From Bradyrhizobium sediminis (GTDB lineage: Bacteria > Pseudomonadota > Alphaproteobacteria > Rhizobiales > Xanthobacteraceae), in the NCBI RefSeq assembly GCF_018736105.1, contig NZ_CP076135.1:1238001-1302000 (forward strand): 64,000 bases of DNA, given 5' to 3'. Under the pieces are notes generated by a model. The model was not told the origin of the DNA. It did no database searches and was given only the letters and a program-made list of their open reading frames with translations. Positions 48,545 through 49,748 of this stretch are shown piece after piece (positions within the stretch are counted from its first letter, which is position 1; the number at the start of each line of letters is the position of its first letter). The position numbers and the translations under genes are program-made.

Positions 48545-48575
48545 ATGAGCTATCGAATTTGTTGCTATAACTCAT
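48545..48575. promoter_or_regulatory. Operator palindrome 1 upstream of the Fic gene
   Basis: Arms ATGAGCTATCG and CTATAACTCAT (9 of 11 positions pair) around a 9-base spacer. Same arm sequence, arm length and spacer length as palindrome 2; starts are 44 bases apart, about four helical turns. Confidence 0.75.
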
Positions 48576-48588
48576 TTTTTACGTAATA

Positions 48589-48619
48589 ATGAGCTATAGA
48601 AGAGGCGCCTATAGCTCAT
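48589..48619. promoter_or_regulatory. Operator palindrome 2 overlapping the Fic start codon
   Basis: Perfect 11-base arms ATGAGCTATAG and CTATAGCTCAT with a 9-base spacer. The right arm includes the first two bases of the Fic ATG. A dimeric regulator bound here would block both transcription and ribosome access. Confidence 0.82.
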
Positions 48620-49748
48620 GAGTTGGAACTGGCAAAGGCCGGATTGGCCAAATTTCACATATGATTCAACGGCTTTGGCGCCGCTGGAAAGGCGGTTCCT
48701 GCTCCAGTCCGGAGAGTTCATCGGCGCTTTCAAGCATATCGGGGCCGATGACCAGGATACCCTCAAAATCGAGCTCATCAGCGACGAGGCCGTAAAAACC
48801 TCCGAAATCGAGGGCGAAATCCTCAACCGCGACAGCGTTCAATCGTCGCTGCGCCATCAGCTTGGGTTGGGAGCAGAAAGGCCGGGCATAACACCGGCTG
48901 AACGCGGCATCGCGAAAATGATGGTCGATCTCTACCGCAGCTTTGCGGACTCACTTGCCGACAAGACGATGTTCGACTGGCACCGCATGTTGCTGAGCGG
49001 CGATACATCCATCCAGGTTATCGGCGGCTACCGGACGCACGCCGAAGCCATGCAGGTCGTCTCGGGCCCGATCCATGAACCCACGGTGCATTTCGAGGCT
49101 CCGCCGTCCAGACGTGTGCCGGACGAGATGAAGCAGTTCGTCACTTGGTTCAACGATACTGCGCCCGGAGGCAAGAATCCGTTGTCGCCGCTGACGCGCG
49201 CCGGCGTTACCCATCTGTACTTCGTGTGTATTCACCCGTTCGAAGACGGCAACGGCCGCATAGGCCGTGCCCTCGCGGAAAAATCCCTCGCGCAAAATCT
49301 TGGTCAGCCCAGCCTGATCGCGCTCGCCTATACGATTGAGCGGAAGCGTAACGATTACTACGCCTCCTTGGAGCGCAATAACAAAGAGACCGAGATCACC
49401 AGCTGGCTCAAATATTTTGCGAACACGATTCTGGAAGCCCAGAACAACACCATCAGGCGCGTGGATTTCTATGTCGCCAAGGCGAAGTTCTACGAGAAGC
49501 ATCGCGGCACGATCAACAAGCGTCAGGAGAAAGTCATCGCCCGGATATTCCGCGAAGGCATCGACGGCTTCAAGGGCGGCTTGAGCGCAGAGAACTATAT
49601 CAGCATAACCGGAACGTCCCGTGCCACGGCGACAAGAGATTTGCAGGACCTGATCGAGAAGGGCGCATTGACCAGGACCGGAGAGCTGCGTCACACCCGG
49701 TATCAGCTTAATTTGGCCAAGCCGCGTGAACTGCATGGGCGCGCGTAG
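48618..49748 (+). CDS. Fic-domain AMPylase with DUF4172 head and C-terminal winged helix
   Basis: A 376-aa protein. The N-terminal DUF4172 domain (MSWNWQRPDWPNFTYDSTAL) carries the inhibitory motif T61-xxx-E65-G66 (TSEIEGEIL), so this is a class II self-inhibited Fic. The active loop HPFEDGNGRIGR (206-217) is complete, predicting transfer of AMP or another nucleotide part to a protein hydroxyl. A winged-helix segment ends the protein (EKVIARIFREGIDGFKGGLSAENYISITGTSRATATRDLQDLIEKGAL). Two matching palindromes cover its promoter and start codon, suggesting autoregulation. No antitoxin gene is adjacent. It is the first gene of the accessory region. Confidence 0.92.
   Translation: MSWNWQRPDWPNFTYDSTALAPLERRFLLQSGEFIGAFKHIGADDQDTLKIELISDEAVKTSEIEGEILNRDSVQSSLRHQLGLGAERPGITPAERGIAKMMVDLYRSFADSLADKTMFDWHRMLLSGDTSIQVIGGYRTHAEAMQVVSGPIHEPTVHFEAPPSRRVPDEMKQFVTWFNDTAPGGKNPLSPLTRAGVTHLYFVCIHPFEDGNGRIGRALAEKSLAQNLGQPSLIALAYTIERKRNDYYASLERNNKETEITSWLKYFANTILEAQNNTIRRVDFYVAKAKFYEKHRGTINKRQEKVIARIFREGIDGFKGGLSAENYISITGTSRATATRDLQDLIEKGALTRTGELRHTRYQLNLAKPRELHGRA

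What the first reader, a model, noticed from the sequence alone, without database searches (positions are those of the whole stretch)
48545..48619. Two matched 31-bp operator palindromes over the promoter and start codon of a Fic AMPylase
Both sites have 11-base arms of the form ATGAGCTAT(A/C)G and exactly 9-base spacers, and they start 44 bases apart. The right arm of the second overlaps the Fic ATG. The Fic protein ends in a winged helix and is self-inhibited by an N-terminal TxxxEG motif, with no separate antitoxin. The inference is a one-gene system in which the AMPylase represses itself, and AMPylation or nucleotide level sets repression.
Basis: partly seen in the sequence, partly recalled or inferred. 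Interest (0 to 1): 0.72.

Follow-up and report, generated by a model that had tools for sequence, protein, structure and literature searches.

The report
Self-operators of a DNA-binding Fic enzyme
A bacterial AMP-attaching enzyme carries its own DNA-binding tail, and its gene starts inside a matched pair of DNA palindromes that seem to have evolved in step with that tail, so the enzyme very probably switches its own gene off.

Summary
In detail: two palindromes (48545-48575, 48589-48619), 44 bp apart, lie over a sigma70-like promoter and the Fic start codon. Conservation shows they are not chance: a finder that does not know the consensus sees such tandem pairs before 182 of 221 DUF4172-Fic genes, against 1 of 663 shuffles; in the own genome the pattern (up to 3 mismatches) occurs only here. 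Operator letters change on the same tree branches as residues 336, 335 and 339 of the Fic's recognition helix, which rank 1-3 of 359 columns. So the Fic protein is the likely reader: an autorepressor. The 51 later loci alone did not confirm the columns fixed in advance (p=0.21). Dyad distances form three classes, means 33.9, 44.3 and 54.8 bp, one helical turn apart, hinting at cooperating dimers. That AMPylation or nucleotide level sets repression is untested; published CccR data speak against its simple form. CccR is a proven autorepressing relative, so this is a family-wide variant of a known kind. New here: the paired geometry, the residue-to-base map and a candidate native DNA site for CbFic2-type enzymes.

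The parts
48545..48575 (.). Operator site 1: imperfect dyad ATGAGCTATCG-N9-CTATAACTCAT (9 of 11 pairs), overlapping the -35 element
   Evidence: conserved before homologues
48589..48619 (.). Operator site 2: perfect dyad ATGAGCTATAG-N9-CTATAGCTCAT, from the end of the -10 to the start codon
   Evidence: its 10-bp-arm form ends on the first base of the start codon in 91 of 121 loci of the 44-bp class
48562..48590 (+). sigma70-like promoter TTGCTA-17-AATAAT, between and over the two operators
   Evidence: 9 of 12 matches, 1 found where shuffles give 0.2; a consensus match only
48600..48605 (+). AAGAGG, weak Shine-Dalgarno candidate 12 nt before the ATG, in the spacer of site 2
   Evidence: read; inference
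48618..49748 (+). Fic gene, 376 aa: DUF4172-Fic-winged helix
48624..48869 (+). DUF4172 domain (residues 3-84); the corresponding domain holds the dimer helix in CbFic2 (PMC10628234)
   Evidence: PF13776, 105.5 bits (cut-off 25)
48798..48815 (+). Inhibitory motif TSEIEG (residues 61-66)
   Evidence: S62, I64, E65, G66 invariant in 38 sequences, T61 at least 90%
49233..49268 (+). Catalytic Fic motif HPFEDGNGRIGR (residues 206-217)
   Evidence: H206, D210-R214 and R217 invariant in 38 sequences
49620..49658 (+). Recognition helix, residues 335-347 (R335, A336, T339 co-change with the operator)
   Evidence: helix; co-change; table:
49668..49709 (+). Wing, residues 351-364 (L357, R358, H359 track operator positions 8 and 10)

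Best explanation
The Fic protein represses its own gene. Its C-terminal winged helix, working as a dimer, reads each palindrome: the recognition helix (R335, A336, T339) reads the TGAGCT part of a half-site and the wing (357-359) its other end. Two dimers sit one behind the other, probably in contact, over the -35 and from the -10 to the start codon, and so keep RNA polymerase off. Shown here: the sites, their family-wide conservation, their presence only at this gene in the own genome, and co-change with the winged helix in the pooled data. Inferred: binding itself, the sign (repression), cooperation of the two dimers, and the use, namely keeping a potentially harmful AMPylase low without a separate antitoxin.
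For: Tandem palindromes in 182 of 221 loci vs 1 of 663 shuffles; with the TG register fixed 175 of 221 (score at least 36) vs 0 of 1105. Own genome: two sites, both here; reversed-pattern control 0. In 149 genomes of the family all 19 with a full-length homologue of at least 60% identity (three of them with one stop inside) carry the site, against 6 of 130 others (Fisher p=3.7e-19). Tree-aware co-change (171 loci, 340 branches): operator position 3 with residue 336 p=2e-7, position 6 with 335 p=5e-6, position 10 with 358 p=8e-6; columns 336, 335, 339 rank 1-3 of 359. Position 3: A336 with A 103 of 103, D with C 36 of 36, P with A 17 of 17, R with T 3 of 3, T with G 2 of 2. The model puts these residues in the recognition helix and wing. 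Promoter under both sites. Relative CccR is a proven autorepressor (PMC9755527).
Against: No binding or expression data exist for this protein. The hold-out fails: in the 51 later loci alone, with the five columns fixed (335, 336, 322, 339, 359), p=0.21; with 335, 336, 339, p=0.11; only 335 and 336 alone give 0.016, a choice made afterwards. The p=0.019 printed used a set of columns (358 included) that I had picked after seeing this set, so it is no clean test. 335 ranked 6, 336 ranked 41, 339 ranked 273 of 358; the winged helix as a whole p=0.82. This set has few operator changes (position 3 changes once). In the first set the single best pairs included residues far from the helix (132, 242, 71), and only 8 of the top 30 pairs lay in 290-376. 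Residue 359 ranks only 87 in the full set, and columns 39 and 75, outside the winged helix, rank 6 and 7. 39 of 221 loci show no tandem pair at the threshold. In the 34-bp class the best promoter-like match does not put its -10 on site 2 in any of 10 loci. Because of the hold-out I set confidence at 0.87, not 0.9.
Confidence: 0.87

Rival explanations
1. Repression is coupled to catalysis: AMPylation state, ATP level or the operator-bound dimer state switches the enzyme between AMPylase, deAMPylase and repressor. This is an addition to autorepression, not an alternative to it.
For: CbFic2, the closest solved structure (TM 0.84, 35% identity), is an AMPylase as monomer and a deAMPylase as dimer, and DNA makes it dimerise, needing its HTH (PMC10628234, passages). 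Same domains, inhibitory glutamate and Fic motif here.
Against: CccR H192A still represses and its authors call toxicity and regulation independent. CbFic2 was tested with random DNA. Nothing tested here bears on it directly.
Confidence: 0.3
2. Another regulator of the host binds the palindromes; the Fic protein does not.
For: Sequence alone never names the binder; 6 of 130 family genomes without a full-length close Fic still hold a site; the hold-out co-change test failed.
Against: In the pooled data operator letters co-change with the Fic's own recognition helix and wing; pairs follow the gene across phyla; four of those six sites belong to Fic remnants, a pair without a gene, or a contig edge.
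Confidence: 0.06
3. The palindromes act as RNA hairpins (attenuator or start-codon masking).
For: Inverted repeats over a start codon can form mRNA stems.
Against: Site 1 lies upstream of the predicted transcript, whose start (about 48597, inferred) falls inside site 2, so the leader lacks most of its left arm; the leader folds no better than shuffles (z 0.15). Arm mismatches give A.C pairs as often as G.U (109 vs 98 of 558), not what RNA pairing selects. No Rfam match at gathering scores.
Confidence: 0.02
4. The Fic protein binds the sites but activates, or only anchors itself there.
For: Sites near -35 can serve activators.
Against: Sites cover the -35 and the stretch from the -10 to the start codon; CccR represses from sites near -35 and -10.
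Confidence: 0.05

Closest known systems
CccR of Yersinia pseudotuberculosis (PMC9755527; section 10 part 1 and passages seen)
   Same: Class II Fic protein with a C-terminal HTH that represses its own gene through inverted repeats near -35 and -10; a dimer is needed
   Different: CccR's footprint is given as two 10-bp boxes 26 bp apart, facing outward relative to the half-sites here; here each site is an inward-facing dyad with a 9-bp spacer and two sites stand in tandem. CccR is a secreted effector; secretion was not looked for here
CbFic2 (CBU_0822, PDB 8CIL; PMC10628234, abstract and passages seen)
   Same: DUF4172-Fic-winged helix, TSxIEG and HPFxDGNGRIGR; best fold match and best PDB sequence match, 224.7 bits
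   Different: Its natural DNA site is unknown (random DNA was used); studied as a histone AMPylase. Here a candidate native site for the family is found
SoFic (PDB 3EQX; PADLOC model SoFic; EcSofic in PMC12249575, abstract and passages seen)
   Same: Fic with C-terminal winged helix; PADLOC SoFic model hits with 149.9 bits
   Different: NCBIfam SoFic equivalog far below its cut-off (61.7 of 550); DNA binding of SoFic not shown according to PMC10628234; EcSofic has a 47-residue downstream antitoxin, AS1, none seen here; weaker fold match (TM 0.61)
Type II toxin-antitoxin autoregulation such as Phd-Doc (recalled; titles and abstract starts seen)
   Same: Toxin gene held down by its own product on promoter palindromes
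   Different: Here toxin-like enzyme, inhibitory motif and DNA-binding domain are one protein; no second gene was seen to recur next to it

Membership tests
DUF4172-Fic proteins (Pfam PF13776 + PF02661) | Both Pfam domains above cut-off | tested here: met
   105.5 and 59.3 bits vs cut-offs 25 and 24
Class II Fic AMPylase | HxFx(D/E)GNGRxxR motif | tested here: met
   HPFEDGNGRIGR 206-217; H206, D210-R214, R217 invariant in 38 sequences
Class II Fic AMPylase | Inhibitory (S/T)xxxE(G/N) helix N-terminal to the Fic motif | tested here: met
   TSEIEG 61-66; aligns with TSAIEG of CbFic2
Class II Fic AMPylase | AMP transfer to a protein | not testable with these tools
   needs an assay
CccR-like autorepressing Fic | C-terminal HTH that reads its own promoter palindromes | tested here: inconclusive
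   palindromes conserved and co-changing with the helix in the pooled data, but the hold-out failed and binding is not shown
CccR-like autorepressing Fic | Operator geometry box-N26-box | tested here: not met
   inward-facing dyads with N9 spacer, tandem, 44 bp apart
CccR-like autorepressing Fic | Expression rises when the gene is deleted | not testable with these tools
   reporter assay needed
CbFic2-like DNA-switched (de)AMPylase | Same fold and domain order | tested here: met
   TM 0.84 over 377 alignment columns, 35% identity to 8cil_A
CbFic2-like DNA-switched (de)AMPylase | DNA binding changes enzyme direction | not testable with these tools
   biochemistry needed
SoFic anti-phage protein | NCBIfam equivalog SoFic above its cut-off | tested here: not met
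   61.7 bits, cut-off 550, although the PADLOC model matches
Two-gene toxin-antitoxin module | Recurrent adjacent antitoxin gene | tested here: not met
   80 loci, up to 3 kb each side: ORFs of at least 90 aa shared with at most 4 other loci; open frames of 25-160 codons within 700 bp downstream shared with at most 4 near-identical loci. The frames shared by up to 13 loci run antisense across the operator and start codon

The most novel reading that the evidence does not exclude
The operator is the antitoxin. When two Fic dimers occupy the tandem palindromes they are both the repressor and the safe, deAMPylating form; when the sites are lost, diluted or cleared, for instance by a replicating phage or during plasmid loss, monomers are freed, the gene fires and the enzyme AMPylates its target: a one-gene toxin-antitoxin system in which a piece of promoter DNA plays the antitoxin.
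Probability: 0.15. Interest if true: 0.88.

Novelty: new variant of a known kind. Interest (0 to 1): 0.62.

Why it matters
DUF4172 proteins are common (PF13776 in 69 of 299 genomes sampled in the phylum; 52 of 385 in the class), yet the natural DNA partner of their winged helix seems unknown outside CccR: the CbFic2 authors used random DNA and named a specific sequence as a goal (PMC10628234). A family-wide operator with a residue-to-base map offers that partner, so the proposed DNA-driven switch between AMPylation and deAMPylation becomes testable with the right DNA. It also offers a large natural set of operator-specificity pairs in one fold, with spacing classes one helical turn apart.

Tried and rejected
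RNA hairpin: rejected. Wider regulon or phage decoys: the A-type palindrome occurs in 15 viral stretches, but only one (L120) has a Fic gene after a tandem pair; the other 14 are single palindromes without a second site of at least 15 of 20, so no decoy claim is made. Other genes under the operator: one candidate, G657 (L246), not pursued. First co-change test on the larger set with an unconstrained register dropped 14 of 179 loci (12 of them from the 56 new ones) and did not put the recognition helix first in the new loci; repeated with a register constraint and with columns fixed alone: p=0.21. Helical phasing by a pooled periodicity score does not single out 10.5 bp (R 0.86-0.92 for 9.5-11.5) because one class dominates; only the three class means speak for it. 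Of six inferred spacing-class changes one (L047) is a register error, since one search gives 45 bp there; L098 reads 54 bp and 34 bp, so single assignments in the TGCGG class are not firm. Short partner gene: none found.

Literature: six searches of the held open-access library; in the listings shown I saw CccR and CbFic2 but no report of this tandem operator. Subscription papers and preprints are not in that library.

Full report
What is there. The Fic ORF runs 48618-49748 (376 aa) and carries DUF4172 (PF13776), Fic (PF02661) and a C-terminal winged helix (a sub-threshold Pfam match; clear in the AlphaFold2 model, mean pLDDT 91.5, recognition helix 335-347, wing strands 351-354 and 361-364). 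A sigma70-like promoter TTGCTA-17-AATAAT (48562-48590) lies under them: site 1 overlaps the -35, site 2 begins at the end of the -10 and ends on the first two bases of the ATG.

Is it more than chance? In this window alone the pair is unusual but not unheard of: 4 of 100 shuffled windows hold some tandem pair of score at least 40, the real one scoring 54. Comparison settles it. One scan of species genomes kept the best 80 of 154 related loci (89-53% identity; alphaproteobacteria, Verrucomicrobiota, Acidobacteriota, Bacteroidota and others by record title, many of them metagenome bins). Together with the window, 81 of 81 show a palindrome scoring at least 15 of 20 near the start, against 9 of 2143 control stretches; 61 of 81 show a second one, against 0 of 2143; the spacing of the best pair is 44 or 45 bp in 72 of 81. 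A finder that does not know the consensus, run on 221 loci (6 duplicates dropped among the later loci; near-identical loci remain in the earlier ones), finds tandem palindromes of score at least 42 in 182, against 1 of 663 shuffles. With the half-site register fixed, 175 of 221 reach 36, against 0 of 1105. Left out of the 221: one locus whose match starts late (L137), 14 viral stretches and the orphan-site loci without a full Fic gene.

Where else? In the own genome (one contig, 5.45 Mb) the pattern with up to 3 mismatches occurs only at these two sites. In 149 genomes of the family all 19 with a full-length homologue of at least 60% identity (three with one stop inside) have the site at up to 2 mismatches, and 6 of 130 others do (p=3.7e-19). 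Those six: G726 keeps a Fic remnant by profile; G289 keeps a 45-bp tandem pair and a short remnant that I read by eye, the profile search reporting none; G674 keeps a 44-bp pair, second site with an 8-bp spacer and read by eye, no gene found; G793 is cut by the contig end (by eye); G657 has a perfect site and half of a second one before another ORF; G676 has one lone palindrome. A reversed control pattern hits 19 of the 149 genomes by my count of the table, so one lone site is within chance.

Who reads it? The operator letters differ between subfamilies and track the winged helix. On a FastTree tree with Fitch parsimony, operator changes were compared with changes of each protein column. First set (95 loci): pooled over operator positions, residues 335 and 336 were the top two of 366 columns (p=2.6e-6 and 2.9e-6), while the list of single pairs was led by residue 132 and only 8 of its top 30 lay in 290-376. 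Full set (171 loci, register fixed): position 3 with residue 336 p=2e-7, position 6 with 335 p=5e-6, position 10 with 358 p=8e-6; columns 336, 335 and 339 rank 1, 2, 3 of 359 by summed score, 358 ranks 10, 359 ranks 87, and columns 39 and 75 outside the domain rank 6 and 7. Later loci alone (51): not confirmed. With the five columns fixed, p=0.21; with 335, 336, 339, p=0.11; 335 and 336 alone p=0.016, chosen afterwards. The p=0.019 used columns picked after I had seen this set. That set has few operator changes, one at position 3, so its power is low, but it is a failed hold-out. The p-values assume independent branches and are uncorrected; the best three survive correction for the 2872 column-position pairs. 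The residue table is nearly a map: at position 3, A336 goes with A (103 of 103), D with C (36 of 36), P with A (17 of 17), R with T (3 of 3), T with G (2 of 2), S with A or G (8 and 2); at position 10, H or Y359 goes with G (77 of 79) and S with A or T (64 of 64); at position 8, L or R357 goes with T (114 of 114) and G with A (51 of 52) (these counts include shared descent). That the columns are the recognition helix and the wing comes from the model, collected afterwards.

Geometry. Within the 30-64 bp searched, dyad-centre distances fall in three classes with none between: 15 loci at 33-34, 121 at 43-45, 35 at 52-56.5 bp; means 33.9, 44.3 and 54.8, steps of 10.4 and 10.5 bp, the helical repeat. 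This points to two dimers touching on one face of the DNA. It rests on few events: six inferred class changes, of which one (L047) is a register error and two are large clades of 49 and 37 loci. Letters and spacing are partly separable: four loci with TGAGSCGAAT letters have the 44-45 bp spacing. Promoter-like matches of score at least 9 exist in 29 of 121, 17 of 35 and 10 of 15 loci of the 44-, 55- and 34-bp classes. The -10 starts 5 bp before site 2 in 15 of the 29 and 16 bp into site 2 in 16 of the 17; in the 34-bp class it overlaps site 2 in 0 of the 10. So a promoter constraint is a rival reason for spacing within a class, and promoter overlap is not shown for the 34-bp class.

Alone and mobile. 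Among ORFs of at least 90 aa within 3 kb, the most widely shared neighbour occurs in 4 other loci (a transporter-like ORF at 27-36% identity, or neighbours of near-identical strains), and 46 of 80 loci share none. A search for a short partner, prompted by the 47-residue antitoxin AS1 downstream of EcSofic (PMC12249575, abstract and passages), finds no short open frame downstream shared with more than 4 near-identical loci. The gene is patchy (2 of 7 genomes of its genus). Plasmids often carry relatives: 1021 of 72,556 records match, but 130 of these at 60-80% identity and the rest lower. This fits a free-standing, toxin-like gene with built-in control.

How it works. Best reading: negative autoregulation by Fic dimers on two operators. 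CccR, another class II Fic protein with a C-terminal HTH, does this, with footprint, reporter, ITC and dimer-mutant data (PMC9755527, section 10 part 1). Whether catalysis is tied in is open. CccR argues no (H192A still represses; activities called independent). CbFic2 argues that DNA state can steer the enzyme (monomer AMPylates, DNA-bound dimer deAMPylates; passages), but with random DNA. The present protein's best structural match is CbFic2. A prediction from the geometry: enzymes of this kind should show their DNA-driven switch best on their own tandem dyads.

Verdict. Observation confirmed; autorepression very likely (0.87, lowered from 0.9 after the hold-out); control by AMPylation or nucleotide unproven. 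A family-wide variant of a known kind, valuable because it offers the native DNA for a class of enzymes.

Noticed in passing
L256, L259, L262, L264, L272, L274, L276, L279 (Fic_N-Fic genes, SoFic side of the superfamily): Tandem palindromes with quite different letters, 41-42 bp apart in five of the eight, also stand before 8 of 27 Fic_N-type Fic genes (score at least 44, against 0 of 540 shuffles; 3 of 30 loci had no usable Fic ORF); autorepression may extend to SoFic-type genes.
   Followed up: partly
L246 (G657), about position 2507, read on the minus strand: A perfect palindrome, with half of a second one at the contig end, stands before an ORF that looks like a DNA glycosylase (by eye, not searched) and not before a Fic gene: possible capture of the operator, or a deletion of fic.
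   Followed up: partly
L250, L254 (G726, G659), L253 (G733), L249 (G289), L247 (G674): Decayed or vanished Fic genes whose tandem operators are still readable (L247 and L249 partly by eye); G659 carries a full-length and a decayed copy.
   Followed up: partly
L116, L117, L124 and L114, L119 (viral stretches): Single palindromes matching the A-type operator in phage-like contigs with no Fic gene in the stretch held; function unknown, perhaps hairpins.
   Followed up: no
Class with TGCGGAGAAT operators, e.g. L091, L095: Extra half-sites between and after the two dyads (one next to the start codon) suggest a longer lattice of binding sites; read by eye only.
   Followed up: no
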